A DNA stretch of 64,000 nt from positions 62,001 to 126,000 of the IMG/VR virus record IMGVR_UViG_3300016457_000282; one strand, written 5' to 3'. Source of the stretch: a virus. The notes under the pieces were generated by a model. It worked only from the letters and a program-made list of their open reading frames with translations. It did no database searches and was not told the origin of the DNA. Both the position numbers and the translations under genes were made by a program. The first letter of the stretch is position 1; each line of letters starts with the position of its first letter. Of this stretch, positions 1 through 64,000 are shown piece after piece.

Positions 1-795
1 AGCACGGAAAAGTGTAGTCGTGTAACCGGTATCGTGGTGTTATGTAATTTGATGTAAAAGTAAACTACTTTGACTAACTGAACATACGATGACTCATAGG
101 TGGTTAGAAGAAGGGAAGTTCCTTCTCAGATGTCTCTTAAAGAGAGATTGTTCCATTATGTGGCAAAGAATGTTGTACAGTGCAGTCAAAGAGTTTTTAC
201 GGGGCGTGAAAGCTTGGTTCAGTAGAGCAAACCAATGTTGTGTAAAGTAAAGGTATTGTATTGTTTTGCATGCGACGCACTGTCTTGGTCATAGCAATTA
301 AGTACTGAATAACTTAGATGTAAGGAGTTTTATCAAAAGTTTTCAGAGAAAACCTAGAAGTTTGTCTCTAAGGTAGTTGACTGCACTGTTTGGTAGCCTT
401 TTCAACATGCGTTGGTAGTTTTTGTTAAGAAAGTAAGGAAAAGTGGAAGAAAAGACAGCTCTGAGGAGAAGCTATTGCAAAGTCAACTAAAGTGAAGGTG
501 GTGTATCGTACTATGCTGTGGAGGCTTGAGTAAGTTTAGCGAACTCGAGTGGTGGCTTCGTAATGCTCCGTGTTGTGGGGGAGTATGGTAAAGAGAGGTA
601 CCGTATCATATTGCGAAGGTGATGTAAGGCCTGGTCCTGCACCGGTAATGTAAAGTCAACTAAAGCAGTCTGAAGTTGTGTGTGGTAACGGTTAAGTGTA
701 CTGTGGTATTTTGAAGTGCAGTAAAGTGAAAGGTGCTGTCGCGTAACGTAGTGATCTGTATTGGCGTCTTAGATTTTTTTCTTCGCTTAAACATA
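1..795. other. Gene-free, repeat-rich region
   Basis: No convincing gene. Degenerate words built around AGTAAAGTGAAAGGTG recur near 245, 488, 592 and 718. A perfect 13-bp inverted pair, ACAGTGCAGTCAA at 177-189 and TTGACTGCACTGT at 377-389, encloses 187 bases and could shape a transcript. The mirror copy is 25636-26430. Confidence 0.6.
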
Positions 796-848
796 GTCAC
801 ATGATTAGGTGCTAAAGCATCACGGTTTTCTTCACGTGATCTGCAAAG
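796..848 (+). repeat. Dispersed hairpin repeat, copy A
   Basis: Contains GTCACATGAT followed by the small stem GGTGC-TAAA-GCATC, then a TTTTCTTCACGTGAT segment ending CTGCAAAG. It belongs to a family of five unique copies (A-E) sharing the GTCACATGA and GCTAAAGCATC blocks. Confidence 0.75.
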
Positions 849-910
849 TACAGTGTCGTATTCCAATGTGTGGGTTCTGTATCGTAGCGTTTAGAGTACA
901 CTTAAACTCC

Positions 911-944
911 GTCACATGACTAGGAGCTAAAGCATCCTGGCTTG
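911..944 (+). repeat. Dispersed hairpin repeat, copy B, just upstream of the IscB leader
   Basis: Starts GTCACATGACTAGGAGC and shares GCTAAAGCATCCTGGCTT with the family, then diverges into the structured iscB leader at about 945. In known IscB loci the guide lies at the 5' end of the omega RNA, which is where this copy sits. Confidence 0.7.
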
Positions 945-1107
945 TGATCATGCCAATGGACTATGGTGATGCACCCAGGGGTGTCGTTCCAGCTCCTGGC
1001 TCTGCGAAGGAGCATTCGATTGAATGCGTTCGTACTTTCAAGCCATAGCTCAGGCCAGGGACGTATTACTGCTCCTGCCCTATAGGGGCATACACCAGGA
1101 GGAAAAT
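911..1107 (+). ncRNA. Candidate omega RNA / structured leader of iscB
   Basis: This GC-richer stretch between copy B of the dispersed repeat and iscB folds into many stems on the iscB strand. Stems seen: CTATGG 961-966 with CCATAG 1043-1048; CACC 972-975 with GGTG 980-983; CCAG 989-992 with CTGG 996-999; TGCGAA 1003-1008 with TTCGTA 1029-1034 enclosing GCATTC 1012-1017 with GAATGC 1022-1027. CTCCTG at 1072-1077 pairs with CAGGAG at 1096-1101, which covers the iscB ribosome site. Known IscB proteins use an upstream omega RNA whose scaffold runs towards the gene. The identification rests on position and structure; the true ends are not known. Confidence 0.55.
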
Positions 1108-1109
1108 CG

Positions 1110-2573
1110 ATGCAACATCAACGATTAATATTTCTTGTAGATGGAAGAAATAACATTTTACATCCAACACGAAAGTTGGATATGGTTAAACGTTGGTTGC
1201 GACAGATGAATGCTAAAGTCATTCGATTTGTCGGTAAAATTATGGTCGTACAAGTGTTCAAGACACTATCGCAGCAAAGAGATAACCCTATATACTGGAT
1301 TGGAGTAGATCCAGGAGATACGATTGGTATTTGTTTAGTCAGAATCACTATGTATAACAAAGTCAAGCAATTGCTAAGTATCGAATTTCACACAAGGTCG
1401 AAAGAAATCAAGCAATTACTTGAGATAAGACGGGGATATCGAAATATGAGACGATACTTCAGACGTAAACGTATTAAGAGAAAAGGACTCGTACCAAAGC
1501 ATAGACCAGCTAGATTCGAAAATAGAAGACGTTTAGATGGACGGTTGACTCCATCAGTTCGACATTTTCTAGAGTCACATAAAGCTGCTATACAGAAAAT
1601 AGTTGAATACGTTCCTGACGCTAACATCTCACTTGAATATGCTAAGTTTGACATCCAACGTATGATGAATTCAGATATTGAAGGTGAGCAGTATCAACAC
1701 GGAAGATTATTCGGTTACCAAAATATTCGTGCTTATGTACTACACCGTGATAAGTATGCATGTCAGCTATGCGGAAAGAAGAACGTTCAATTTCAGCTGC
1801 ATCATGTAGTACCCAGATCTCAAAACGGTAAAGATCATCCGGATAATCTTATTACACTGTGCCCAGATTGTCACGTTAAAGTACATACTGATGCTCAGTT
1901 GCTGAAAAGAGTACAAAGCAAAATCAAAACGAAAATAGCAGACTTCACATCTACATCCAGACTCAATATCATTATGCCGTTTTTAAAAGATTGGTTGTCA
2001 GATGCTTTCGGTAAAGAACATGTTTGGTTCTGTATTGGTGCTGATTCATATGTTATTCGTAGAGAGCTCAATCTTGTCAAATCTCACTGTAATGATGCTT
2101 ACTGTATTGCTATCAACAAACTGATGCGAAACAACGTTGAAATCAAACATGAACCATTCATCGATAAACATGTGGTACGTTTTGAACAGAAACGACAGCA
2201 TAATCGTAGAATGAAGAATAGCGAACGTAATCGATTGTACTATGTCATCAAAAACAAGAAGTGTATTCGTGTAGCTACGAATCGAAATGGAAATCCAGAG
2301 TCATTTCATAACGTATACAGTACGAAAATTCTACCACTGTTAAAACAGGGTTATCAAGTCAAAGTAAATCCTGGTGTCAAAGGCTATCGAAAGAAGTTCT
2401 CTGAAGTTGGATTCAAGGAAGGTGCTACAATTGAAATCGACAATCATATTGATGTGTTGAAGGGTTATAGTTTGACAGGTGGATTTGGATATACATACGA
2501 TGGAACACGATTCAAGCTTAAGGATATGAATGTAGTATATCCATATGGAGGATGGAAATGCGTAGAAACATAA
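1110..2573 (+). CDS. iscB: IscB-type RNA-guided nuclease (RuvC plus HNH)
   Basis: The 487-residue protein has the full IscB order. A PLMP-like N-terminus (about 6-50) is followed by RuvC-I at GVDPGDT with Asp67. An arginine-rich bridge at 107-150 includes RRXRR-type repeats and ARFENRRR. RuvC-II is SLEYAKFD with Glu176, next to the YQHGRLFGY block. The HNH domain has zinc cysteines 218/221 and 251/254 and the LHHVVPRSQNGKDHPDN core. RuvC-III is KSHCNDA with Asp329. All catalytic residues I can place are present, so it is probably an active nuclease, and its length fits the family. AGGAGG at 1097-1102 is seven bases from the ATG and can be masked by an upstream stem. IscB proteins are ancestors of Cas9 and work with an omega RNA; the leader here is a good candidate. 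Confidence 0.9.
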   Translation: MQHQRLIFLVDGRNNILHPTRKLDMVKRWLRQMNAKVIRFVGKIMVVQVFKTLSQQRDNPIYWIGVDPGDTIGICLVRITMYNKVKQLLSIEFHTRSKEIKQLLEIRRGYRNMRRYFRRKRIKRKGLVPKHRPARFENRRRLDGRLTPSVRHFLESHKAAIQKIVEYVPDANISLEYAKFDIQRMMNSDIEGEQYQHGRLFGYQNIRAYVLHRDKYACQLCGKKNVQFQLHHVVPRSQNGKDHPDNLITLCPDCHVKVHTDAQLLKRVQSKIKTKIADFTSTSRLNIIMPFLKDWLSDAFGKEHVWFCIGADSYVIRRELNLVKSHCNDAYCIAINKLMRNNVEIKHEPFIDKHVVRFEQKRQHNRRMKNSERNRLYYVIKNKKCIRVATNRNGNPESFHNVYSTKILPLLKQGYQVKVNPGVKGYRKKFSEVGFKEGATIEIDNHIDVLKGYSLTGGFGYTYDGTRFKLKDMNVVYPYGGWKCVET

Positions 2574-2788
2574 CACAGATTCATTCATGCGCTAAAGCAT
2601 CATGGCTTTCTCTGTATGGAGATTGTAAAGAGTATGTAACTAGTTTCTTTGAAGTTCGTTGGTGGAGTACGAAAGAAGGGCGTTATAAGAAAACGAAAGT
2701 GAGTATCAGGCGGAATGGTGGATATAAGAAAGCTCTAAGAAAGACTTTGGAAGTTCAACAGGAGAAGGAAAATGCGGAAGCAAACTAA
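2558..2788 (+). CDS. Small basic protein downstream of iscB
   Basis: A 76-residue protein overlapping the last codons of iscB. The second ATG (2558) is chosen because GGAGG at 2547-2551 is six bases away, while the ATG at 2552 touches it. It is basic and aromatic (FFEVRWWSTKEGRYKK). Its N-terminal codons run through repeat copy C, so part of the sequence may reflect the repeat. I do not recognise a family. Overlap suggests translation coupled to iscB. Confidence 0.5.
   Translation: MRRNITQIHSCAKASWLSLYGDCKEYVTSFFEVRWWSTKEGRYKKTKVSIRRNGGYKKALRKTLEVQQEKENAEAN
2585..2630 (+). repeat. Dispersed hairpin repeat, copy C, at the 3' edge of iscB
   Basis: Shares ATGCGCTAAAGCATCATGG and CTTTCTCTGTATGGAGATTG with the family and lies 12 bases after the iscB stop. 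Copies B and C thus flank the omega RNA plus iscB unit. It overlaps the next small gene. Confidence 0.7.
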
Positions 2789-4745: not shown

Positions 4746-4946
4746 GTGAAGGACCACAAAAATGAGTGGTTAGCGAAAGTGTTTCCTCTTTGGTTCAAAG
4801 TAATCAAAGGTAATCCTTATAGGTTGCCTATAGGAAAGGTATTACGAGGGCGATACAAAGATGGCGATGCTTCTCCATTTCCCGTAGAATTACAAGGCAA
4901 TCAAATGTATCAAATGAAGTTGGAAGAAGTTGAAGAAATTAAATGA
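4746..4946 (+). CDS. Unknown small protein, GTG start
   Basis: 66 residues starting at GTG 4746 behind GAGGAGGTTATACG. Contains AKVFPLWFKVIKGNPYRLP and an acidic end. Its stop lies within the ribosome site of the pentapeptide gene that follows. Function unknown. Confidence 0.55.
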   Translation: MKDHKNEWLAKVFPLWFKVIKGNPYRLPIGKVLRGRYKDGDASPFPVELQGNQMYQMKLEEVEEIK

Positions 4947-4957
4947 AGGAGAGAAAC

Positions 4958-5950
4958 ATGGATAAAGAGGAATTAGCGCAGATATTAAAGGAACACAAAA
5001 AGTGGTTGACAGGGAAGGGAGGAGGAACTAAAGCTGATTTAAGAGGAGTTGATTTAAAAGGAGTTGATTTTTCAAAGGCTAACTTGAGAAAAGCTAACTT
5101 TAAAGACGCTAATCTTACAGGAGCTAACTTTAGAGAAGCTAATCTTAGCTGGGCTAATCTTCAAAGAGCCGATCTTAGAGAAGCTAATCTCATAGGAGCT
5201 AATCTTAAGAAAGCTATTCTCGCGGAAGTTGATCTCCAAGGAGCCGATCTCACGGAAGTTGATCTCACGGGAGCTAACCTCTGGAGAGCTAATCTTAAGG
5301 AAGCTGATCTCGCGAGGGCTGATCTCAGAGGAGTTGATCTCAGGGAAGTTGATCTCTCGAGAGCTAATCTTACAGGAGCTAATCTCAGGAAAGCTATTCT
5401 CACGGAAGGTGATCTTGAGGAAGCTAATCTCACAGGAGCTGACCTTTGGAGAGCTAATCTTAAGGAAGCTGATCTCGCGAGGGCTGATCTCAGAGGAGTT
5501 GATCTCACAGGAGCTGATCTTAGGGAAGCTAATCTCACAGAGGCTGACTTTAGGGAAGCTAATCTTAAGGAAGCTATTCTCACGGAAGCTGATCTTAGAG
5601 GAGTTAATCTCAAGGATGCCAGAATAAATTATTTGACCACGGGCATCCACCCAGCACCGGAAGGAGATCTAATTGGTTGGGGAAAGAAAGACGGGTACAT
5701 CGTCAAACTCCTCATCCCTAAAGAAGCTCGCCGGTCATGTGCTACAACAAGAAAGTATAGAGCAGAATATGCTATTTGTTTAGAGGTAGAGGGAACAGAT
5801 GAGGTAATAGTAAAGAATAGTCATGCTACCGCCGTTTATCGACCTGGAGAAAAGGTGGTAGCACATGAATGGTGTGAGGATAGATGGCAAGAATGTGCGG
5901 GAGGAATTCATTTCTTTCTGACTAGAGAAGAAGCAGAAGCATGGGGTTAG
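4958..5950 (+). CDS. Pentapeptide-repeat protein with C-terminal DUF5758-like domain
   Basis: 330 residues from ATG 4958. The ATG at 4943 is in frame but lies before the AAGGAG at 4946-4951, and the paralogue starts at the equivalent MNKEELAQIL, so 4958 is preferred. Residues about 10-35 form a short helical head. About 185 residues of A(D/N)LxxA(N/D)L-type pentapeptides predict a right-handed quadrilateral beta-helix. The last 110 residues (IHPAPEGDLIGWGKK, YRAEYAICLEVEG, CAGGIHFFLTREEAEAW) match the domain often fused to such repeats in phages. Some pentapeptide proteins mimic DNA and protect gyrase; whether this one does is unknown. Confidence 0.85.
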   Translation: MDKEELAQILKEHKKWLTGKGGGTKADLRGVDLKGVDFSKANLRKANFKDANLTGANFREANLSWANLQRADLREANLIGANLKKAILAEVDLQGADLTEVDLTGANLWRANLKEADLARADLRGVDLREVDLSRANLTGANLRKAILTEGDLEEANLTGADLWRANLKEADLARADLRGVDLTGADLREANLTEADFREANLKEAILTEADLRGVNLKDARINYLTTGIHPAPEGDLIGWGKKDGYIVKLLIPKEARRSCATTRKYRAEYAICLEVEGTDEVIVKNSHATAVYRPGEKVVAHEWCEDRWQECAGGIHFFLTREEAEAWG

Positions 5951-5973
5951 ATAAATAGTAGAAGGAGGAAAAC

Positions 5974-6717
5974 ATGAATAAGGAGGAATTAGCGCAAATA
6001 TTAAAGAACCACGAAAAGTGGCTGACAGGAAAAAAGGGAACAAAAGCTAATCTGGAAGAGGTTGATTTGAGAGGAGTTGATCTCACAAGAGCTGATCTTA
6101 GGGAAGCTAATCTCAGAGGAGCCGACCTCTGGAGAGCTAATCTCTGGAGAGCTGATCTCTGGGGAGCTAACCTCAGAGAAGCTAACCTCAGAGGAGCTGA
6201 TCTCTGGGAAGCTAACCTTTGGGAAGCTAATCTCAGAGGAGCTAATCTCTGGGAAGCTAACCTCTGGAGAGCTAATCTTAAGGAAGCTGATCTCACAGGC
6301 GCTGATCTCAGAGGAGCTGATCTCACAGGCGCTGATCTCACGGGAGCTAATCTCAGGGATATCAGAATAAATTATTTAACCGTGGGTATCCACCCAGCAC
6401 CAGAAGGGGATCTAATTGGTTGGGGAAAGAAAAACGGCCACATCGTCAAACTCCTTATCCCTAAAGAAGCTCGCCGGTCATGTGCTACAACAAGAAAGTA
6501 TAGAGCAGAATATGCTATTTGTTTGGAAATCGAAGGAGCAGATGAGGTAAAAGTAGAAAATTACTATGCTACTGCGATTTACCGGTCCGGAGAAAAAGTG
6601 GTAGCACATGAGTGGTGTGAGGATAGATGGCAAGAATGTGCAGGAGGAATTCATTTCTTCCTGACTAGAGAGGAAGCAGAAAATTGGGTTGACTCAAAGG
6701 AGGTAAACCATGATTAA
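5974..6717 (+). CDS. Second pentapeptide-repeat protein with DUF5758-like domain
   Basis: 247 residues, paralogue of the preceding gene with the same head (MNKEELAQILKNHEKWLTGK) and C-terminal domain but about 17 fewer pentapeptides. Behind GAAGGAGGAAAAC. Tryptophan-rich repeats (ADLWRANLWRADLWGANL) are typical of this copy. Tandem duplication followed by repeat gain or loss is the likely origin. It overlaps the next gene by eight bases. Confidence 0.85.
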   Translation: MNKEELAQILKNHEKWLTGKKGTKANLEEVDLRGVDLTRADLREANLRGADLWRANLWRADLWGANLREANLRGADLWEANLWEANLRGANLWEANLWRANLKEADLTGADLRGADLTGADLTGANLRDIRINYLTVGIHPAPEGDLIGWGKKNGHIVKLLIPKEARRSCATTRKYRAEYAICLEIEGADEVKVENYYATAIYRSGEKVVAHEWCEDRWQECAGGIHFFLTREEAENWVDSKEVNHD

Positions 6718-12657: not shown

Positions 12658-12899
12658 TACTGAAATACAGTACTAATTAGTCGCGCGTATTTTCGCACAA
12701 AATCATAGGAATTTGCGCAGTTCTTTGTTCAGAGTATGTCTTAGTATTGCTAGTAGGGGAACCATCACAAATTCGCGCATTTTGTGAGTTTTAGTTACTT
12801 TATGGTTCAACAAAGCCCTCAATTAGTTGCCTTAGTACGAATAGGAGAGGTTGTTACGTCCGTTTGAACCTAGGAGGGGTTCCCTTTGAACTCCCCATT
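12658..12899. other. Gene-free subterminal region
   Basis: No gene. GGAATTTGCGCAGTT (near 12710) and AAATTCGCGCATTTTG (near 12771) resemble each other and CAATTTGCGCGTTTTAG at about 41046, upstream of the ParB-like gene, which may point to a shared binding site. Confidence 0.4.
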
Positions 12900-12953
12900 G
12901 TCACATGATCAGGTGCTAAAGCATCCAGCTTTCTCTGCATGAAGTTTGTAAAG
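12900..12953 (+). repeat. Dispersed hairpin repeat, copy D
   Basis: GTCACATGATCAGGTGCTAA then AGCATCCAGCTTTCTCTGCA and TGAAGTTTGTAAAG. With copy A it is the fullest match to the family and lies about 260 bp from the palindrome axis. Confidence 0.75.
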
Positions 12954-12975
12954 TTATTACAAACCTGCGGTCCAT

Positions 12976-13035
12976 AGGAACTAATAAACTTATATAGGAA
13001 CCAATAAACTTATATAGGAACCAATAAACTTATAT
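12976..13035 (+). repeat. Three 20-bp tandem repeats near the palindrome centre
   Basis: Three head-to-tail copies of a 20-bp unit beginning AGGAACYAATAAA and ending CTTATAT. The first copy has T where the other two have C. They lie about 200 bp from the dyad axis, a typical place for subterminal repeats in linear replicons. Confidence 0.9.
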
Positions 13036-13067
13036 AAGATTATACAAATTTATGTTTTCGGAACTGA

Positions 13068-13150
13068 GTTTCGAGGGTTTTTGGAAAAGTTTCGAGGGTT
13101 TTTGGAAAAGTTTCGAGGGTTTTTGGAAAAGTTTCGAGGGTTTTGGGAAA
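13068..13150 (+). repeat. Four 21-bp tandem repeats next to the palindrome centre
   Basis: Four copies of a 21-bp unit starting GTTTCGAGGGTTTTTGG begin at 13068, 13089, 13110 and 13131; the last is slightly shortened. The G-rich strand points towards the axis, as in many telomere-proximal repeats. Function is not known. Confidence 0.9.
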
Positions 13151-13175
13151 TTTTGACGGTCTAACTCGGTGAAAT

Positions 13176-13255
13176 CCTTAGCAAATTTTGCTTAATAAGA
13201 TTTAATAAGATCTTATAAGATCTTATTAAATCTTATTAAGCAAAATTTGCTAAGG
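13176..13255. other. Centre of the palindrome, candidate hairpin telomere or resolution site
   Basis: The dyad axis falls between 13215 and 13216 inside TCTTATAAGA (13211-13220). Smaller palindromes are nested off-centre: AAGATCTT at 13207-13214 and again at 13217-13224. The core is extremely AT-rich and contains ATTAAAT/TTAATAAG words. Protelomerase targets such as N15 telRL are also perfect palindromes resolved into closed hairpins; that comparison is by analogy only, and no protelomerase gene lies in this window. Confidence 0.5.
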
Positions 13256-23659: not shown

Positions 23660-23873
23660 TTTCCTTCTCCTGTTGAACTTCCAAAGTCTTTCTTAGAGCT
23701 TTCTTATATCCACCATTCCGCCTGATACTCACTTTCGTTTTCTTATAACGCCCTTCTTTCGTACTCCACCAACGAACTTCAAAGAAACTAGTTACATACT
23801 CTTTACAATCTCCATACAGAGAAAGCCATGATGCTTTAGCGCATGAATGAATCTGTGTTATGTTTCTACGCAT
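23643..23873 (-). CDS. Inverted copy of the small basic protein 2558
   Basis: Mirror of 2558-2788. Confidence 0.5.
   Translation of the reverse strand: MRRNITQIHSCAKASWLSLYGDCKEYVTSFFEVRWWSTKEGRYKKTKVSIRRNGGYKKALRKTLEVQQEKENAEAN
23801..23846 (-). repeat. Inverted copy of dispersed repeat C
   Basis: Mirror of 2585-2630. Confidence 0.7.
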
Positions 23874-25321
23874 TTCCATCCTCCATATGGATATACTACA
23901 TTCATATCCTTAAGCTTGAATCGTGTTCCATCGTATGTATATCCAAATCCACCTGTCAAACTATAACCCTTCAACACATCAATATGATTGTCGATTTCAA
24001 TTGTAGCACCTTCCTTGAATCCAACTTCAGAGAACTTCTTTCGATAGCCTTTGACACCAGGATTTACTTTGACTTGATAACCCTGTTTTAACAGTGGTAG
24101 AATTTTCGTACTGTATACGTTATGAAATGACTCTGGATTTCCATTTCGATTCGTAGCTACACGAATACACTTCTTGTTTTTGATGACATAGTACAATCGA
24201 TTACGTTCGCTATTCTTCATTCTACGATTATGCTGTCGTTTCTGTTCAAAACGTACCACATGTTTATCGATGAATGGTTCATGTTTGATTTCAACGTTGT
24301 TTCGCATCAGTTTGTTGATAGCAATACAGTAAGCATCATTACAGTGAGATTTGACAAGATTGAGCTCTCTACGAATAACATATGAATCAGCACCAATACA
24401 GAACCAAACATGTTCTTTACCGAAAGCATCTGACAACCAATCTTTTAAAAACGGCATAATGATATTGAGTCTGGATGTAGATGTGAAGTCTGCTATTTTC
24501 GTTTTGATTTTGCTTTGTACTCTTTTCAGCAACTGAGCATCAGTATGTACTTTAACGTGACAATCTGGGCACAGTGTAATAAGATTATCCGGATGATCTT
24601 TACCGTTTTGAGATCTGGGTACTACATGATGCAGCTGAAATTGAACGTTCTTCTTTCCGCATAGCTGACATGCATACTTATCACGGTGTAGTACATAAGC
24701 ACGAATATTTTGGTAACCGAATAATCTTCCGTGTTGATACTGCTCACCTTCAATATCTGAATTCATCATACGTTGGATGTCAAACTTAGCATATTCAAGT
24801 GAGATGTTAGCGTCAGGAACGTATTCAACTATTTTCTGTATAGCAGCTTTATGTGACTCTAGAAAATGTCGAACTGATGGAGTCAACCGTCCATCTAAAC
24901 GTCTTCTATTTTCGAATCTAGCTGGTCTATGCTTTGGTACGAGTCCTTTTCTCTTAATACGTTTACGTCTGAAGTATCGTCTCATATTTCGATATCCCCG
25001 TCTTATCTCAAGTAATTGCTTGATTTCTTTCGACCTTGTGTGAAATTCGATACTTAGCAATTGCTTGACTTTGTTATACATAGTGATTCTGACTAAACAA
25101 ATACCAATCGTATCTCCTGGATCTACTCCAATCCAGTATATAGGGTTATCTCTTTGCTGCGATAGTGTCTTGAACACTTGTACGACCATAATTTTACCGA
25201 CAAATCGAATGACTTTAGCATTCATCTGTCGCAACCAACGTTTAACCATATCCAACTTTCGTGTTGGATGTAAAATGTTATTTCTTCCATCTACAAGAAA
25301 TATTAATCGTTGATGTTGCAT
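23858..25321 (-). CDS. iscB: Inverted copy of IscB-type nuclease
   Basis: Mirror of 1110-2573. This is the copy contiguous with the unique sequence, so it is the better reference copy if the palindrome is a read-through. Confidence 0.9.
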   Translation of the reverse strand: MQHQRLIFLVDGRNNILHPTRKLDMVKRWLRQMNAKVIRFVGKIMVVQVFKTLSQQRDNPIYWIGVDPGDTIGICLVRITMYNKVKQLLSIEFHTRSKEIKQLLEIRRGYRNMRRYFRRKRIKRKGLVPKHRPARFENRRRLDGRLTPSVRHFLESHKAAIQKIVEYVPDANISLEYAKFDIQRMMNSDIEGEQYQHGRLFGYQNIRAYVLHRDKYACQLCGKKNVQFQLHHVVPRSQNGKDHPDNLITLCPDCHVKVHTDAQLLKRVQSKIKTKIADFTSTSRLNIIMPFLKDWLSDAFGKEHVWFCIGADSYVIRRELNLVKSHCNDAYCIAINKLMRNNVEIKHEPFIDKHVVRFEQKRQHNRRMKNSERNRLYYVIKNKKCIRVATNRNGNPESFHNVYSTKILPLLKQGYQVKVNPGVKGYRKKFSEVGFKEGATIEIDNHIDVLKGYSLTGGFGYTYDGTRFKLKDMNVVYPYGGWKCVET

Positions 25322-26430: not shown

Positions 26431-26570
26431 AATACTACCTTTCCCCATTCTACCTACGATGGCTCTGTAATCTTCTGGTTTGCAAACTGATTTTCCGCTC
26501 ACGGAACTGAGCATCACTGTGCTCATGCTTAGCTCTATAAAGACAAACCTTCACGCTTCGTTACAGTGCA

Positions 26571-26623
26571 TTACAAACGCCATACAGAGAAAGTCATGAT
26601 GTTTTAACACAGGATCATATGAC
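26571..26623 (-). repeat. Dispersed hairpin repeat, copy E (outside the visible palindrome)
   Basis: On the minus strand it carries GTCATATGATCCTGTGTTAA, then AACATCATGACTTTCTCTGT and ATGGCGTTTGTAA. It is more diverged than A-D; the only family member in sequence not duplicated in the window. Confidence 0.6.
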
Positions 26624-26637
26624 CACTACTACATACT

Positions 26638-36285: not shown

Positions 36286-36420
36286 TTACTCCTTTACTAA
36301 GTACTTAACAGTTACACATAAAATCAATAAACCTATAAAGTTCGCTACAGGAAACCATGAACCATCACTACTAATCAAACATATACTACCGCCAAATATT
36401 AATCCTTTTAGGAAGTTCAT
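36286..36420 (-). CDS. Short membrane protein of 44 residues
   Basis: Behind AAAGGAGTGTATT. MNFLKGLIFGGSICLISSDG and FIGLLILCVTVKYLVKE give two short hydrophobic segments. It ends directly against the next start. Could be a membrane microprotein; no family known. Confidence 0.55.
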   Translation of the reverse strand: MNFLKGLIFGGSICLISSDGSWFPVANFIGLLILCVTVKYLVKE

Positions 36421-36434
36421 AATACACTCCTTTC

Positions 36435-37064
36435 TTAACACCAATCCTTACGTAATTCTTCGTACTCACGATGTAAAATTTGTAGAATCTGTTTTGGTCC
36501 TTTAGACGGAACTTTCTTTTGCCAGTACAAGTACATATCGCAACTAAACTTCTTTACGAGATACCTTCCATTTCTTGTAACATAATTGGATATGTACAAC
36601 TCATTTCCAGTCTCTTCAGACACAATTGAAAGATAGTAGTGAACATACTTTCTGCCAAATGCCAGCACGGGGTCTGAGCGACGGAATATAAGTCCAGGAA
36701 TGACAGAAGGTTTAGTAACAGGCGACTGTTTGATACGCTCGTATTTTGCTTTAGCTTCACGACGTTTTTCTTCCTCAAGCTTCTTTCGTTTTTCTTCTTC
36801 GGCTCTGAGGTAAGCATCGATTTCCTGAATGTCTTTTGTTATTACTTCTTCTACTTTCTCAGGACACTTGAGAACGTAATCACTAATACTGGCTCCTGTG
36901 CTGCTCGAAGAGAAGTAAGAAGTAACAATAGACAAGTCGTCTGAGACGTAACGCAGAACAGGCTTGTCTTGATGTTCTATTTTCACTAGAGCTAATGAGA
37001 GATCAACTACTTTCTTGTCTAACCATACCTTCGCCGCAATTACAGAACCTTGTCTTAGTTGCAT
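36435..37064 (-). CDS. Unknown protein with charged coiled coil
   Basis: 209 residues. Beta-rich N-terminal third, then a highly charged helix (RAEEEKRKKLEEEKRREAKA, about 86-110), then a beta-rich C-terminal half (RKYVHYYLSIVSEETGN). No family recognised. Confidence 0.65.
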   Translation of the reverse strand: MQLRQGSVIAAKVWLDKKVVDLSLALVKIEHQDKPVLRYVSDDLSIVTSYFSSSSTGASISDYVLKCPEKVEEVITKDIQEIDAYLRAEEEKRKKLEEEKRREAKAKYERIKQSPVTKPSVIPGLIFRRSDPVLAFGRKYVHYYLSIVSEETGNELYISNYVTRNGRYLVKKFSCDMYLYWQKKVPSKGPKQILQILHREYEELRKDWC

Positions 37065-37076
37065 ATCCAGTCTCCT

Positions 37077-37442
37077 TTACTCAATTTTTACTTCAGGATA
37101 AAGTACTACTTTCTGTGTCAATTCCCGTAAGTGAGCGTTGCCGTCTACAAACCGAATTTCGTACTCGTAGTCTGTACAGCCGAGTTCTTCTTCTAATGGC
37201 ACTAAGTACACATTACCTGACTCTCCTTTCTTCAAATACCAAACAAGCTGAGCCGCAAGGTCTGTCATTCCGTTGTAGACATTTGTCGCTCCTACAGGAA
37301 TTCCGTTAACATAGCGACGTACTTTTAGAAACTCTTGTAGCTGCTTTCCTACACCGCTCAAATATCCATCAAACAGTATGTAGATTAAACAGATAGGACG
37401 GTCGTCTTCATCGTATACAGTAACAGTAGCTTGTGTTCCCAT
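37077..37442 (-). CDS. Widespread small phage protein (FDGYxSGxG type)
   Basis: 121 residues behind AAGAGGAGGTAAAAT. TVTVYDEDDRPICLIYILFD, GYLSGVGKQLQEFL, NGMTDLAAQLVWYLK and YEYEIRF match a family found in many phages and prophages. Function is unknown to me. It is the gene after the reverse transcriptase in the operon. Confidence 0.7.
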   Translation of the reverse strand: MGTQATVTVYDEDDRPICLIYILFDGYLSGVGKQLQEFLKVRRYVNGIPVGATNVYNGMTDLAAQLVWYLKKGESGNVYLVPLEEELGCTDYEYEIRFVDGNAHLRELTQKVVLYPEVKIE

Positions 37443-37466
37443 ATTTTACCTCCTCTTAATTTAGTA

Positions 37467-37560
37467 GTTCCGGCTGAGACCTTGTACCTTTACGACTGCG
37501 AAGTGACTAAGTAGCAAGTGAGCGTAACACTCACTATGAGATAGGTCCTATAGCCGGAAC
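37467..37560 (-). ncRNA. Candidate structured RNA at the 3' end of the reverse-transcriptase gene
   Basis: GTTCCGGCT (37467-37475) pairs with AGCCGGAAC (37552-37560), extended by GACCT/AGGTC, and encloses AGTGAG-N7-CTCACT. The fold is about 94 bases and includes the RT stop. It is not a tRNA (no T-loop). It could be a terminator-like end, a stability element, or part of the retroelement. Confidence 0.45.
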
Positions 37561-38496
37561 CGTTTCACTTCGGTACACCATATTTAACCAACCTTTGATA
37601 CCGTTGATTTTATGTTTACTTAATGAGATCTTACCTGTCTTATTGTTGTGAAGCATAGCTCGGTACAATCTTCTAACCTTACGCGATATCGTAACTTTGT
37701 CAGAATGAACTACACAACCCAAAACTCGTAGCTTGCCTCTTCCGACTCTTAACTTAGAAGGATGAAGCTCAAGACTGATTTTGTTTAGGTAACGGTTAAT
37801 GACCTGACTCGTTTTTGAGATGGAGATTTTAGCGTCTTTAGGAAAGGACACTAGTATATCATCTGCGTAACGAGTGTATACACCGTGTAGTCTCGCAATT
37901 ACTTCTGCAATTACTAAATCAGTCTGAGAAAGCACGATATTGAACAACCGGCCCGAAGTAGGAGCTCCTTGAGGTAAACCTTTAAAGTAACAATCTCTTA
38001 TCAACATTTGTCTAACAGAAAGCGGCACATCGTGCTTTACCAGTACTGAGTCGAGAACTTTTTTTCTGATCGAAGGATAAGCATCCTTTATGTCCAGTCT
38101 TAGGAACAAGTAGTTACCTACATGCTTTTCAAGAGCATCTCGTAAAGATCTGCGTTTCTCGAACGCATAAGCGTGCGTCACTTTAGGAACCAAAATGTAG
38201 GTTAGCTTTAACCACGCTCGCTGTCTCTCCTTGAGTTGATCTGAAGGAATGTACAGAGTTCTAAAACCACCAGACCTTTTAGGGATCCTAACAGGAGTAT
38301 ACTCAACTTTAACGTCTTCGCTTAACACATTATGGTACTGTTCATACCAATCTCTCAAAGCGTGCTTACGCACTCCTAACCAAAAAGCAGAAGTGCCTTT
38401 CTCTACCAACTGTGAGTAAACAAAAGCAAAGGAAGGAGACATCTCAACTTCTTCAACATCGTTAAAGATCGACAACAGTTCGTCCAAGCTGAACAT
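37534..38496 (-). CDS. Retron-like reverse transcriptase
   Basis: 320 residues behind AGAGGAATAGT. RT motifs are present: first catalytic Asp in RLDIKDAYPSI (133-143), KGLPQGAPTSG (172-182), and YTRYADDILVSF with YADD at 210-213. The end of the palm, RVLGCVVHSDKVTISRKVRR (257-276), and the following thumb resemble the VTGxxVN...V..R..R region of retron RTs. QGAPTS rather than LGNxTSQ argues against a diversity-generating element. It has no obvious fused effector. The upstream 400 bases carry no gene and several stems, as expected of a retron ncRNA. Confidence 0.75.
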   Translation of the reverse strand: MFSLDELLSIFNDVEEVEMSPSFAFVYSQLVEKGTSAFWLGVRKHALRDWYEQYHNVLSEDVKVEYTPVRIPKRSGGFRTLYIPSDQLKERQRAWLKLTYILVPKVTHAYAFEKRRSLRDALEKHVGNYLFLRLDIKDAYPSIRKKVLDSVLVKHDVPLSVRQMLIRDCYFKGLPQGAPTSGRLFNIVLSQTDLVIAEVIARLHGVYTRYADDILVSFPKDAKISISKTSQVINRYLNKISLELHPSKLRVGRGKLRVLGCVVHSDKVTISRKVRRLYRAMLHNNKTGKISLSKHKINGIKGWLNMVYRSETVPAIGPIS

Positions 38497-49920: not shown

Positions 49921-49951
49921 CATTAATCTGCTAAGAGAGGCAAGGGAACTC

Positions 49952-52087
49952 CTACTCCTCAACTGTAATAATCCTACACTTGTTCTTATCACCACTCCAA
50001 CGAATTTCCGGGATTATCTTTTCACGTATTATTCTGTGTTTGTATTTGATTAGGTTGGTTAAGATGTTTTTGATCACTACAGCGGGGTTTGCTGTAGGTT
50101 TGTAGCCAAGTCTAGGTAAGTTGTTCCTATCAGGGTTGTAGTAGTGATCTTCCGCTTCAACTCGTGGATTTTCATAGTGAGCGAGTTTGACAGTGAACCC
50201 CAGCTTTTCTGCCTCCCTCTTTACCAACCGAGCCAGCCAGATGATTTCGTATACATCCTCGAATTGGTTAAACACTCTATATTCTCCTTCCTTGGGAGGG
50301 TTCTCAATAGCAATACGGAAGCATTGCATGGAGTCTTGAATGGGAAGGAACCCTCTCTTCTGCTTCCCTTTTCCATAAACCGTTAGTGGAATTCCTACAA
50401 TAGCCTGAGCGCAAGTACGATTTACGAGAGTGCCGAAGCAGTTATGCACCTGGACGTTGTTTGCGACGTACGTGTGATCTTCTTCAACATGGAGGTTGTA
50501 TACCTTCCCTTTGTACATCTTACTTGAAACTGATTTTACTCGCACCAGGTTGTCAAACCCTCCTGAATGTAAATAGATAGGACAGCTCAAATCCATTACG
50601 CTTATGATCGAAGTCCCGTTTGCGACTAACCTGTTAAACCTCTCATACTTCTCAAGGAACGGATTAGTTTGAACTTGGAGCCATTCTTTTAGTTCTCGCG
50701 CTGTCATCCACCGTGTCGTCTCTTTACCGTGCGCTGAAGAGAGCGTCGTTACTAAGATGGGATGACCTGGCGTACAAACAATTTTTCCAAAAGCGCGCTC
50801 AAGTTCTATCTCTATCACTTCCCCAACGTATTCTCGTTCAAACTTCTTAAGCACCTTTCGAAACCGACCCTTATGAGTTAAGACTTTGTCTCCTACCTGA
50901 ACGTCTTTTATAGGTTTTACGCCCTCTAAGCATGTAATTCTGGTGTTAGGAGGAAAACATTCATCTACATCATAGCGAGTAATTAATCTCTCATCTCCTT
51001 TCATTTCGGGGATCTGAATCCCATAAACCACTCCTTGCATGATATCAGTAGATCTAAGCCCCCAAACGTCGCAAGCAAATCTAATGTTGACAGAATCGTG
51101 TACCTTCGTACAATGATAAAAACTAGGAGGTTGACAAGGAAAAGGAAGAGTATCTTTACGCCCTCTATATTCAACTTCAAAGAATCCCTCAGGAATGTCG
51201 AGGTTTGTGACGCCATACTCTCCCATTGTGTTTCCTGACCAAGCCGCTTTTCCGTTCCGGCGTACATATATGATTCCTGTAGGAACGGTGCAACAGTACA
51301 CCTTTCCTGCATAAGGAACCCATTCCATATCAGAAGGAGTTACTTTAGTTTGGCTATCTATCTGTGGAATTATGAAGCTAGATTTCTTTGCCACGTGATC
51401 AGCCCTCTTTATCTGCACAACTCCCGAAGGAGATTCTCTAAAGACCACTCTATGATTGGGAGTAATCACGAAATCGACATCGTCGTTCACAATTCTCAGC
51501 ATCTCTCCCGCATACGGATACTCAACTATATGGTTTGGACAGTTGAACGATACTTCTCCTGTTTCTCCGTTGAGACAGCATACTTTGTCAGAGTAATCTA
51601 GGTCCTTGAACAACTTCCATCCTTTACTTGTTAGCACCTCTGTTTTGTCGTCATAACATCCTAATTTAACTAAGTGGATATCCTTACTCACAGCTTTGAT
51701 GGCGTACAAAAGGTTTAAGGTCCCCACTAGGTTGTTGACTTGGGTGAAAGTAGTGTGATGTACATCGATCATTGAGTAAGGTGCAGAAGGCATTTCACCT
51801 AGGTGGACAATTGCATCTGGTTTGAACTCTTTAATGGAGTTCAACACAAATTTGGGGTTCCTTAAGTCCCCGAAATAGAAAATAGGTTTCCTACCAAACA
51901 CTTCCTCACAAGCACGTATCCTCTCTTCCATACTCGCGATGGGTGTCACGGATTGAGATCCCATCTCCTCAACCCACTCTCTTCTCAACATCAAATCACA
52001 GCCACCTACTACGTAACCCCTAGCAAGTAAGTAAACAGTTAAAGTCCAACCCAAGTAACCATCCATTCCTGCAATATACACTCTCAT
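49952..52087 (-). CDS. sqdB: UDP-sulfoquinovose synthase-like enzyme interrupted by two inteins
   Basis: 711 residues from ATG 52087 behind GGGAGGTTGCAG (a TTG six bases upstream is rejected). The exteins join into about 395 residues matching SQD1/SqdB: Rossmann start MRVYIAGMDGYLGWTL, HLGEMPSAPYSMID, VKLG-TMGEYG, SFYHCTKVHD, GVVYG, VFNQFEDVY, RVEAEDHYYN. In plant SQD1 the catalytic residues are Thr, Tyr and Lys; here Thr287, Tyr324 and Lys328 are present. Intein 1 is residues 144-286, intein 2 is 377-549. The enzyme makes UDP-sulfoquinovose from UDP-glucose and sulfite. In a phage it could decorate a surface glycan or reroute host sulfolipid, which is inference. Confidence 0.85.
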   Translation of the reverse strand: MRVYIAGMDGYLGWTLTVYLLARGYVVGGCDLMLRREWVEEMGSQSVTPIASMEERIRACEEVFGRKPIFYFGDLRNPKFVLNSIKEFKPDAIVHLGEMPSAPYSMIDVHHTTFTQVNNLVGTLNLLYAIKAVSKDIHLVKLGCYDDKTEVLTSKGWKLFKDLDYSDKVCCLNGETGEVSFNCPNHIVEYPYAGEMLRIVNDDVDFVITPNHRVVFRESPSGVVQIKRADHVAKKSSFIIPQIDSQTKVTPSDMEWVPYAGKVYCCTVPTGIIYVRRNGKAAWSGNTMGEYGVTNLDIPEGFFEVEYRGRKDTLPFPCQPPSFYHCTKVHDSVNIRFACDVWGLRSTDIMQGVVYGIQIPEMKGDERLITRYDVDECFPPNTRITCLEGVKPIKDVQVGDKVLTHKGRFRKVLKKFEREYVGEVIEIELERAFGKIVCTPGHPILVTTLSSAHGKETTRWMTARELKEWLQVQTNPFLEKYERFNRLVANGTSIISVMDLSCPIYLHSGGFDNLVRVKSVSSKMYKGKVYNLHVEEDHTYVANNVQVHNCFGTLVNRTCAQAIVGIPLTVYGKGKQKRGFLPIQDSMQCFRIAIENPPKEGEYRVFNQFEDVYEIIWLARLVKREAEKLGFTVKLAHYENPRVEAEDHYYNPDRNNLPRLGYKPTANPAVVIKNILTNLIKYKHRIIREKIIPEIRWSGDKNKCRIITVEE
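50441..50959 (-). other. Mini-intein 2 (173 residues) in the sqdB-like gene
   Basis: Starts CFPPNTRITCLEGVKPIKDV (Cys1) and ends HVEEDHTYVANNVQVHN before Cys550. Block B is CTPGHPILV; the terminal HN and +1 Cys are intact. Insertion is between YDVDE and CFGTLVNR of the extein. No homing endonuclease domain. Confidence 0.85.
51230..51658 (-). other. Mini-intein 1 (143 residues) in the sqdB-like gene
   Basis: Starts CYDDKTEVLTSKGWKLFKDL (block A, Cys1) and ends YVRRNGKAAWSGN before Thr. Block B is VITPNHRVVF with TPNH; block F is VYCCTVPTGIIYVRRNG. No LAGLIDADG or HNH homing domain. The +1 residue is Thr287, the catalytic threonine, so the enzyme is dead until splicing. Confidence 0.85.
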
Positions 52088-61522: not shown

Positions 61523-64000
61523 TTAAACCTCCTCTATGGTTCGCCTCGGCGTAAGCGATTCTATAGTTGTGTCTACAATCAAACCTAACATGGTAGTGAT
61601 CAACTCAACCGCTCCAGTTAAGGTCGTACTATCTACTCCCAAAGATGTCGATCTTAGTACCCTGAGCAACACATCCGCAGTAATGGTGTTAGAGGTAATA
61701 TCTATAGCAAGTGCCTTTAGAATCGCGAGAGCTGCTTGAGCAACCTGAGCAGTGACTACAATCTCTACTTGCCCAACTTTAACGATTATTAGCCCGACGC
61801 TGTTCGACGACGTAACAGCGGCCTGAATAGCAGAAGTAACAGAGCGAATCAGCTCGAGTACCACAGCGTGCGAAGCGGTTTGAGTTTGAACTTCAGTTGA
61901 AATCAGTCTTAATATCGAGAACTTCGCATTACCAGTAAGAACTTGTGAAACAACATCAGCGGCTGCTTTTATGAGCGCGGCAATAGAAAGTTCAACAGAA
62001 TCTGAAGAGGTAGTCTTAACTTCGGTTAGTGTTAACAACTCGCGTAGTACATTCGAACTAACTTCACTGGTAGTAACAGTAGTTACAACGTTGGCCGCAG
62101 CAATAAGCACTTCGACTAACAACAAGACAACGTCATCAGCAGCCAGTGTTTGGACTGAGGTAGCACTCGAAACAGGTCTTAGCACTCGTAGCGGAGCTGT
62201 TGAACCACTTGCTTGACTTAAAATATTAACGAGCACTTCTCTCAATAACTCAAGAGGTACATCGCCCGTGCCAGTAGTCGTTTGAATATGTGATACGAGA
62301 GCTCGTTTTATTGCCAGAGAAGTAGTTGAAGGTATAACTAGCGCAAGAATGTTTGAGACTGCTGTGATCAACTGCGCTAGGAGAAGTTCGGCGTCGTCGG
62401 GAGTTGACGATTGTGCGGTGATCGAGTTTAAAGCAATCCGTAGAACGTTCAATGTCGTAGGTGACGTAACAGTGTGACTCAAAACGTAGGTAAACACCCT
62501 TTTCAGTAGTCGAAGTACTACACTGTTGGAGTCCGTCAACACAGAAGCGCTCGTTACAAGTGACCGGAGTACCAAGAGACGTGGCGTGTTAGTACTTGTT
62601 CCAGTGACAATGTTCGCGATCGCTGTAAACAGCTCGGCCAGCGAAAGTATGACTTCGTCAGAGGCGTCGGATTGCAAGGGTATATTTGCCAGCAACTCCC
62701 TAACTACGTGTAAGTGAATCAGAGCTGATGTAAAAGACTGCGCTTGTAGCGAGCTTGTGAGATTCCTCAAAACTCTGAGGGCAGTAGTGCTTGCGTACGA
62801 CTGAATTGGCTCAGAACTAGTTACACGGCGTAGTACTGAGAGAGCACCACTCGGAGTAAACGTACCAACCTGAGATTGTGTTAAAGCGTTCCTCAGTATA
62901 TCTAAATGAAAGATGCTAGAGTCAGAGACTGGGAGTACGTTACTTAACAGCGACCGTAAGATGACTAAATCCGAATCGGCAGTAGTTGATTGACTACTTA
63001 CACCGACCATCGCTAGTTTAGTTAAAGAGAGGATAATCTCGTCAGTAGAGGAACTAGGTTGAATGTTTGAAGTAAGGGTAAGGAGCAGTCCTAAGTGGGA
63101 AAGAGAAGTAGTGCTTAGAGAACTGAGGGAAGCTGATATACTCCTGAGTACGCTAAACGACGTGGCCGGAGTGAGAGACGCTAATAGTATATCAGCTATA
63201 GCTGTAAGTACTCCTCCACCTCCGCTCACATATTCATCCACTCCAATATCCCAAGGAGCAGAGCGAGTTTCACCATCGATGTCGTCAGTGAAAGCTAAAT
63301 AAGGATCAGATGAAAGGTCTGTACCTGCGTCTCTAGCTACTGTATCAGAAGCATCAAGGTGAAAGTCGCCATTAGCTGCGTCTACAAAAGTGACCGTAGC
63401 ATTATGGATTGAATTTGGTCCTGGAGCTGTATCATCTGACGAGATGTTGAAATCTGAATCAGAGTCGAAAACTCCAACAAAACAAGTAGTACAGTCAACA
63501 ATGTTGTTGATAGCTCTGCAATACCCTGATGATCCACCATCTACACCAGTACCACAGTTGATAATAGTATTGTTGTATAAGTAGTAATAGTCGTTTCCAC
63601 GAATGGCATATTGAGGTATGTCATAAAAAAGATTATTGACCAAATAAATTTGTACAGCAGAATTATCACAACTAATTCCAGTATTTACTGTTCCACCAGC
63701 ATTCTCTCTACAGAGGATACATTTTTCGACCCGCAGATAACGGCTTGTGTAATATGTATGTATCAACAACTGAGACCCTGTCGATCTCGTTCCTTTCATC
63801 TGTAAGCCAATAAGTCTCACATACTCTTCTTGTATGTCAAAAATAGTTCCTTCGGAGAGCACAAGCCTGTACTTTGTGTCATCCCATTTCCCTGGGTGTC
63901 TGTACCCCTGATCTGGATCGGTCCAAATCCTAATGTAGTGATCCGAGTCTACAGAAGTCCATCCATCAATAGTAACTGCACTATCATCCTCATCCCCAGT
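61523..64000 (-). CDS. Large tail fibre: beta-helix plus repeated LRxL helices, 5' end outside window
   Basis: The frame is open from 64000 (TGDEDDSAVTIDGWTSVDSD ...) to TAA/TAG before 61523, 825 codons in view. The first 250 residues form a right-handed beta-helix (RVEKCILCRENAGGTVNTGI; NNIVDCTTC; WDIGVDE). The rest is 18 or so units of about 30 residues built on VLR-x2-x-S, then Q-x-S/T-rich linkers, probably an elongated shaft. No ATG can be assigned in the window. Confidence 0.75.
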   Translation of the reverse strand, partial: TGDEDDSAVTIDGWTSVDSDHYIRIWTDPDQGYRHPGKWDDTKYRLVLSEGTIFDIQEEYVRLIGLQMKGTRSTGSQLLIHTYYTSRYLRVEKCILCRENAGGTVNTGISCDNSAVQIYLVNNLFYDIPQYAIRGNDYYYLYNNTIINCGTGVDGGSSGYCRAINNIVDCTTCFVGVFDSDSDFNISSDDTAPGPNSIHNATVTFVDAANGDFHLDASDTVARDAGTDLSSDPYLAFTDDIDGETRSAPWDIGVDEYVSGGGGVLTAIADILLASLTPATSFSVLRSISASLSSLSTTSLSHLGLLLTLTSNIQPSSSTDEIILSLTKLAMVGVSSQSTTADSDLVILRSLLSNVLPVSDSSIFHLDILRNALTQSQVGTFTPSGALSVLRRVTSSEPIQSYASTTALRVLRNLTSSLQAQSFTSALIHLHVVRELLANIPLQSDASDEVILSLAELFTAIANIVTGTSTNTPRLLVLRSLVTSASVLTDSNSVVLRLLKRVFTYVLSHTVTSPTTLNVLRIALNSITAQSSTPDDAELLLAQLITAVSNILALVIPSTTSLAIKRALVSHIQTTTGTGDVPLELLREVLVNILSQASGSTAPLRVLRPVSSATSVQTLAADDVVLLLVEVLIAAANVVTTVTTSEVSSNVLRELLTLTEVKTTSSDSVELSIAALIKAAADVVSQVLTGNAKFSILRLISTEVQTQTASHAVVLELIRSVTSAIQAAVTSSNSVGLIIVKVGQVEIVVTAQVAQAALAILKALAIDITSNTITADVLLRVLRSTSLGVDSTTLTGAVELITTMLGLIVDTTIESLTPRRTIEEV

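What the first reader, a model, noticed from the sequence alone, without database searches (positions are those of the whole stretch)
911..2573. A phage-borne IscB locus with an upstream structured RNA
All IscB catalytic residues are intact (Asp67, Glu176, HNH core, Asp329), and about 160 bases of dense stems precede the gene where an omega RNA should lie. IscB in a phage accessory arm is unusual and could serve homing, superinfection exclusion or element maintenance.
Basis: partly seen in the sequence, partly recalled or inferred. Interest (0 to 1): 0.87.

Follow-up and report, generated by a model that had tools for sequence, protein, structure and literature searches.

The report
Phage IscB nuclease with divergent omega RNA
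A phage carries a genuine, apparently intact RNA-guided DNA-cutting enzyme of the Cas9-ancestor family IscB with its guide-RNA gene beside it; phages carry such genes often, and sequenced relatives suggest that they serve to copy themselves into matching sites in other phages.

Summary
Window 1110-2573 encodes a full-length IscB (NCBIfam guided_IscB 223 bits; top Foldseek hit OgeuIscB, E 6e-24) with D67, E176, HNH and D329 intact. The Rfam omega-RNA model (HEARO) hits 911-1069 directly upstream. The hit is weak (28 bits, gathering 83; E 0.003), but two further features support it: a guide-adaptor hairpin (911-948, z -3.7) and a nexus pseudoknot CGUUCC/GGGACG, kept with changed sequence in 20 of 21 loci compared. 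The scaffold probably ends near 1069, not 1107. "Unusual in a phage" is wrong: 392 stretches in IMG/VR encode relatives, and over 16% of HEARO-encoding fragments are reported as viral. The homing idea gains indirect support. In Silviavirus phages such an element is present in 7 records and absent from at least 30; the sequence just 5' of the omega RNA matches the empty site, and the right flank carries a synonymously recoded copy. No empty site was found for the window's own copy. Unexpected: the 150,430-base record is a perfect 2 x 75,215 palindrome, so the "second IscB" (23858-25321) is a mirror image. Repeats resembling the element's ends lie at three other places in the phage. No Y1 transposase was found.

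The parts
895..910 (+). Putative guide segment (AGTACACTTAAACTCC), immediately 5' of the omega-RNA scaffold
   Evidence: Position by analogy with OgeuIscB (PMC9640706) and with the empty-site pairs in Staphylococcus phages. No second match with up to 3 mismatches in its own 75 kb genome; the 17-mer has no exact match in IMG/VR.
911..1069 (+). Omega-RNA scaffold (HEARO, RF02033), divergent and compact (159 nt)
   Evidence: cmscan 28.3 bits, E 0.003, same in an independent contig; homology between the two element copies of a related phage begins just at the HEARO start.
911..948 (+). Guide-adaptor hairpin: GUCACA(911-916)/UGUGAU(943-948) enclosing CUAGGA-GCUAAAGC-AUCCUGG
   Evidence: MFE fold z -3.7, 1 of 200 shuffles as good; counterpart of HEARO P1 and of stem loop 1 in OgeuIscB.
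961..1048 (+). Central region: stem CUAUGGU(961-967)/GCCAUAG(1042-1048) closing over the nexus hairpin and hairpin GCAUUC(1012-1017)/GAAUGC(1022-1027)
   Evidence: MFE and HEARO alignment.
985..1063 (+). Nexus pseudoknot: CGUUCC(985-990) pairs with GGGACG(1058-1063)
   Evidence: 20 of 21 loci can form at least 5 pairs here with locus-specific sequence, against 22% of mismatched loop/tail combinations.
1072..1101 (+). Hairpin CUCCUG(1072-1077)/CAGGAG(1096-1101) that would cover the ribosome-binding site of iscB
   Evidence: Sequence and fold of 944-1109; function inferred.
1110..2573 (+). iscB, 487 aa RNA-guided nuclease (PLMP, RuvC-I/II/III, HNH, C-terminal TAM-interacting region)
2569..2640 (+). 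Right-end-like repeat (R copy c): TTCATGCGCTAAAGCATCATGGCTTTCTCTGTAT, overlapping the iscB stop; right end of the element probably near 2617
   Evidence: nhmmer on the repeat; leave-one-out E 2.6e-9; homology to viral contig L022 stops at ..CTGTAT.
904..943 (+). Half copy of the repeat (R copy b) = left end of the element and 5' part of the omega RNA
   Evidence: nhmmer E 2.1e-5 with a model not trained on it.
788..858 (+). R copy a: second left-end-like sequence 115 nt upstream
   Evidence: Left half matches copy b (z 7.2), right half does not match copy c.
12892..12962 (+). R copy d: hybrid, left half like the left end, right half like the right end, nothing between (candidate solo remnant)
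   Evidence: z 3.0 and 5.6.
26560..26630 (-). R copy e: right-end-like solo copy
   Evidence: Right half matches copy c z 7.4; left half does not match copy b; coordinates converted from record 61801-61871.
23858..25321 (-). Mirror copy of iscB produced by the palindromic record; not a second gene

Best explanation
The locus is a stand-alone IscB-omegaRNA mobile element in a phage. Shown by sequence: a complete IscB, an omega-RNA scaffold just upstream, and end-like repeats on both sides. Inferred: the RNA is made with the ~16 nt 5' of position 911 as its guide, loads onto IscB, and the complex cuts DNA carrying that sequence next to a target-adjacent motif. Because the guide is copied from the element's own left flank, the targets are alleles that lack the element, in co-infecting related phages or in sister copies from which it was lost; repair from the occupied copy installs or restores it. 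It thus works as an RNA-guided homing or retention device.
For: Protein identity and catalytic residues. Omega RNA at the canonical place: HEARO 911-1069; relatives carry HEARO upstream of iscB, most at 45-144 bits; pseudoknot conserved by covariation; guide-adaptor hairpin z -3.7. Mobility of the nearest relatives: one 238 kb viral record has two copies (83% identical) with sharp ends at the HEARO start and ..GATAAAAA. Homing logic in Staphylococcus phages: Silviavirus, 7 records occupied, 30 of the listed ones empty; guide-position sequence ACAAATAGTAAAAAAAA equals the empty site, the right flank holds the recoded ACAAATTCGAAGAAAAA, 4 mismatches within the 14 TAM-proximal bases that OgeuIscB needs. 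In Baoshanvirus a 92%-identical element sits at two different sites with different flanks, one with a matching empty site. The window's guide has no other target in its own genome.
Against: No empty allele of the window's own site was found: three phages sharing the upstream gene have neither the element nor the flanks. No expression or cutting data. The omega-RNA score is far below the gathering score. The guide has no exact match in IMG/VR. No Y1 transposase in the record, so how the element reached this site is unexplained. The Staphylococcus phage elements are only distantly related (26% protein identity for L021).
Confidence: 0.68

Rival explanations
1. Superinfection exclusion or inter-phage warfare: the guide targets essential sequence of competing phages without copying the element into them.
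For: An IscB without a transposase could be kept for cutting alone; any homing nuclease also harms element-free competitors (inference; no transposase found).
Against: The guide-position sequence matches nothing in IMG/VR exactly. In the Staphylococcus phages with empty sites the target is the insertion site itself, the pattern of homing.
Confidence: 0.12
2. Passive IS200/IS605-type cargo: the element is moved by a Y1 transposase supplied in trans, and IscB mainly restores it after excision.
For: End-like hairpins with CTAAAG on both sides and further end-like repeats at three other places; HEARO/IscB originally linked to IS200/IS605 (PMC9755519); one Y1 transposase in the MAG that carries the same phage contig.
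Against: No Y1 transposase in this record; the literature reports that only a few HEARO nucleases lie near TnpA; host assignment of that MAG contig is uncertain.
Confidence: 0.15
3. A decaying relic: protein ORF intact, omega RNA already degenerate and non-functional.
For: Low HEARO score (28 against 72-144 bits in several relatives).
Against: Essential pseudoknot and adaptor hairpin kept; full-length ORF with all catalytic residues; low scores also occur in the Silviavirus element (32.5 bits).
Confidence: 0.08
4. The repeat R is a phage sequence that served as insertion target; the omega RNA starts at about 944 and its guide is R itself (924-943), with the right flank holding a second copy.
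For: Copies b and c share an 18-base core directly flanking the element, formally like the flank duplication in Silviavirus.
Against: R's CTAAAG..GGCTT hairpin matches the canonical HEARO 5' hairpin; copy b alone folds strongly; the guide would then match copy c with one mismatch in 16 and risk self-cutting.
Confidence: 0.1

Closest known systems
OgeuIscB-omegaRNA (PDB 8CSZ, 7XHT; PMC9640706)
   Same: Domain order, RuvC/HNH residues, overall fold match (Foldseek E 6e-24); adaptor hairpin, central stem, nexus hairpin and nexus pseudoknot have counterparts.
   Different: About 23% identity in the structural alignment; scaffold 159 against 206 nt; guide source and target-adjacent motif here unknown.
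HEARO RNA, RF02033 / HEARO nucleases (PMC9755519)
   Same: RNA immediately upstream of the nuclease; conserved pseudoknot and 3' end; viral members already reported (over 16% of fragments).
   Different: Scores 28 bits (gathering 83); second hairpin of the 5' domain missing.
IscB elements of Staphylococcus Silviavirus and Baoshanvirus phages (L021, L127, L128, L130)
   Same: Phage-borne omegaRNA+iscB unit, divergent omega RNA (32.5 bits in L021); in Silviavirus the downstream gene start overlaps the iscB end, as here.
   Different: Protein 26% identical (L021); empty sites and guide matches known there, not here; no CTAAAG end hairpins seen.
IscB elements L023/L112 of the 238 kb viral record IMGVR_UViG_3300028364_000014
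   Same: Closest relatives found by length and N-terminal motif (32% identity; 495-496 aa); CTAAAG hairpins downstream of the stop.
   Different: Two copies at different sites in one genome; omega RNA longer with the full 5' domain (45 bits).

Membership tests
IscB (OMEGA RNA-guided nuclease) | PLMP + split RuvC with inserted HNH, intact D/E/D and HNH residues | tested here: met
   NF040563 223 bits over cut-off 175; invariant D67, E176, H232, D329.
IscB (OMEGA RNA-guided nuclease) | IscB fold | tested here: met
   Foldseek top hits are IscB structures; model only medium confidence, pLDDT 66.8.
HEARO / omega RNA (RF02033) | Covariance match at or above the family's gathering score | tested here: not met
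   28.3 bits, gathering 83.
HEARO / omega RNA (RF02033) | Best match immediately upstream of iscB on the same strand, better than chance | tested here: met
   911-1069, E 0.003 across 4227 families and 3 kb.
HEARO / omega RNA (RF02033) | Nexus pseudoknot | tested here: met
   6 pairs, locus-specific sequence; the window's tail pairs at most 5 with any of the 20 other loops.
HEARO / omega RNA (RF02033) | RNA expressed and bound by IscB | not testable with these tools
   Needs RNA sequencing or pull-down.
IS200/IS605 (ISC) transposon | Y1 (HUH) transposase encoded in the element or phage | tested here: not met
   PF01797: no match in the 150,430-base record; the record may be incomplete.
IS200/IS605 (ISC) transposon | Subterminal hairpins at both ends | tested here: inconclusive
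   Left-end hairpin strong (z -3.7); right-end copy z -1.3; end homology clear.
RNA-guided homing endonuclease | Guide-position sequence equals the uninterrupted insertion site of relatives | tested here: inconclusive
   Met in Silviavirus and one Baoshanvirus pair; no empty relative for the window.

The most novel reading that the evidence does not exclude
Stand-alone phage IscBs, this one included, form a class of RNA-guided homing endonucleases that spread without a transposase. The guide is taken from whatever sequence lies 5' of the element at each new site, and genes hit by the insertion are kept alive by a new start and a synonymously recoded copy that is also immune to the element's own guide. 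This phage keeps one intact element and several end-only remnants of earlier insertions.
Probability: 0.4. Interest if true: 0.75.

Novelty: new member of a known kind. Interest (0 to 1): 0.5.

Why it matters
It adds a phage member with a short, divergent omega RNA that the standard Rfam threshold misses; a pseudoknot check recovers it, which suggests phage omega RNAs are under-annotated. The comparison it prompted gives ready-made natural tests of RNA-guided homing: occupied and empty alleles of IscB elements in sequenced Staphylococcus phages, with guide matches and a recoded flank.

Tried and rejected
'Two IscB copies in one phage': rejected, the record is its own reverse complement. Close relatives of the protein in IMG/VR by single-sequence search: none; in GTDB genomes only the same phage contig in a MAG. 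Repeat R as a widespread phage element: only one other viral contig, L022, has it, and none of 287 genomes of the MAG's phylum apart from the MAG itself. Right-end hairpins as a general IscB feature: 13% of loci against 6% in shuffles, weak. Guide targets: none with up to 3 mismatches in its own genome, none exact in IMG/VR, only its own locus in the MAG. Empty site through the upstream gene's relatives: no shared flanks. Homologues of the downstream ORF in phages: none. Promoter scan: at chance level. Template/variable-repeat search around the reverse transcriptase: none found.

Full report
CHECK OF THE OBSERVATION. The ORF at 1110-2573 is real: 487 aa, ATG start, AGGAGG at 1097-1102. It passes NCBIfam's guided_IscB cut-off (223 against 175 bits), matches Pfam RRXRR and HNH and solved IscB chains (E ~1e-39). 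An AlphaFold model of medium confidence (pLDDT 66.8) has OgeuIscB as its best Foldseek match (E 6e-24). TM-scores are modest (0.44), as may be expected for a model of this confidence built without RNA.

THE RNA. The Rfam HEARO (omega RNA) model matches 911-1069 with 28.3 bits, E 0.003 in a search of 3 kb against all 4227 families. The other matches there are unrelated and weaker. Several relatives score 72-144 bits, but the Silviavirus element scores 32.5 and the closest relative L023 45. Overall folding energy is not informative. Two features are. First, 911-949 folds into a strong hairpin (z -3.7), the counterpart of the guide-adaptor hairpin of OgeuIscB (PMC9640706) and of the HEARO 5' domain with its CUAAAG..GGCUUG signature. 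Second, the nexus pseudoknot, whose disruption abolished editing by OgeuIscB (PMC9640706), is present as CGUUCC(985-990)/GGGACG(1058-1063). I extracted loop and tail by hand from 21 loci: 20 can form at least 5 consecutive pairs with locus-specific sequence, against 22% of mismatched combinations, and the window's tail pairs worse with all 20 other loops than with its own. The loop and tail stretches were chosen by eye at the expected places, so this is supporting rather than blind evidence. The scaffold's 3' end is near 1069. Between it and the start codon lies a hairpin that would cover the ribosome-binding site.

IS IT UNUSUAL IN A PHAGE? No. An alignment search of IMG/VR found 392 stretches encoding relatives, 22 GenBank phage records match, one GenBank record already annotates 'HEARO' at such a locus, and Goltsman et al. 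2022 report that over 16% of HEARO-encoding fragments are viral or prophage-derived (PMC9755519).

THE RECORD ITSELF. The window lies in a 150,430-base virus record that equals its own reverse complement exactly, with the centre at window 13215/13216. The second IscB found by search is therefore a mirror image. A separate 21 kb contig in a MAG (JAGGSE010000227.1) carries the same locus and stops inside the tandem repeat near the end of the unit, short of the palindrome centre. The doubling is an assembly artefact or reads through a hairpin-like genome end; I cannot tell which.

ENDS AND REPEATS. A ~75-base repeat R occurs in full at record positions 61801, 62788, 64569 and 74892 and as a half copy at 62904-62943 (window 904-943), which is the 5' part of the omega RNA. 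The copy at window 2569-2640 overlaps the iscB stop. Left and right halves were compared separately: copy d combines a left-end-like and a right-end-like half, copy a resembles only the left end, copy e only the right end. The simplest reading is that R represents element ends and that the other copies are remnants of earlier insertions, but this is inference. One copy sits in an otherwise unrelated tail-gene contig. No Y1 transposase is present.

RELATIVES SHOW MOBILITY AND HOMING LOGIC. A 238 kb viral record has two copies of the closest relative (83% identical) with sharp borders: homology starts at ATAGTCAATTACCC, where HEARO begins, and stops at GATAAAAA. In Staphylococcus Silviavirus phages 7 records carry an IscB element and 30 of the 40 listed records have both flanks without it. 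In occupied L021 the 17 bases before the element are ACAAATAGTAAAAAAAA, identical to the empty site; after the element comes ACAAATTCGAAGAAAAA, which encodes the same TNSKKK residues of the interrupted resolvase with four changes, all within the 14 TAM-proximal positions. The resolvase now starts at an ATG overlapping the iscB stop. Because of the A run, the exact border is ambiguous by a base or more. In a second occupied lineage (L128) the guide-position sequence has one mismatch to the empty site. In Baoshanvirus, Golestan101-M carries the element where PSU4 has an uninterrupted site, and JDF86 carries a 92% identical element elsewhere with a different flank. Only two empty Silviavirus sites and one empty Baoshanvirus site were read base by base.

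THE WINDOW'S OWN SITE. Three phages sharing the gene upstream lack the element and share no adjacent flank, so guide, target-adjacent motif and right border cannot be proved here. The putative guide (895-910) has no second match in its own genome with up to 3 mismatches; a 17-base version has no exact match in IMG/VR, and in the MAG only its own locus matches.

JUDGEMENT. A genuine IscB with a genuine, divergent omega RNA (identity about 0.95). Its role as a homing or retention device is the best-supported reading, by analogy with relatives (combined confidence 0.68). It is a new member of a known kind.

Noticed in passing
window 1-26430 (centre 13215/13216); whole record: The 150,430-base record is a perfect palindrome of a 75,215-base unit with no spacer; gene counts and copy numbers from it are doubled.
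   Followed up: yes
window 12970-13215; L132 end: The unit ends in tandem repeats (AAAGTTTCGAGGGTTTTTGG and a 20-base AT-rich repeat) followed by a short palindrome; a separate contig stops inside an array of the first repeat. Possible linear genome end.
   Followed up: partly
record 49935-50897 (window 37534-38496, -): Reverse transcriptase (RVT_1, 84 bits); no template/variable repeat pair found within the criteria used.
   Followed up: partly
record 159-1244 (L003:159-1244) and 36338-38479: A LAGLIDADG homing endonuclease and an epimerase-like gene with an intein: other selfish elements in the same phage.
   Followed up: no
window 1-900: About 900 bases without a convincing ORF upstream of the element, bounded by R copies; no Rfam family matches.
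   Followed up: partly
window 4943-6717: Two adjacent genes of long pentapeptide-like repeats (A[DN]LxxA) with nearly identical C-termini.
   Followed up: no
window 2552-2788: The downstream ORF starts inside the iscB end and reads through the right-end repeat, similar to the resolvase start in Silviavirus.
   Followed up: partly
L021, L125, L126, L128: Silviavirus IscB element with recoded flank restoring the interrupted resolvase gene: a candidate RNA-guided homing case in culturable phages.
   Followed up: partly
L022:6250-6411 (-): Copy of R next to a further CTAAAAG hairpin in an IscB-free tail-gene contig: perhaps a small non-autonomous element.
   Followed up: no
G001 (MAG AUK014): The MAG holding the same phage contig is ~1.2 Mb and its phylum sample consists of 0.4-2 Mb genomes, which suggests a small-genome host lineage; binning of a phage contig is weak evidence.
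   Followed up: no
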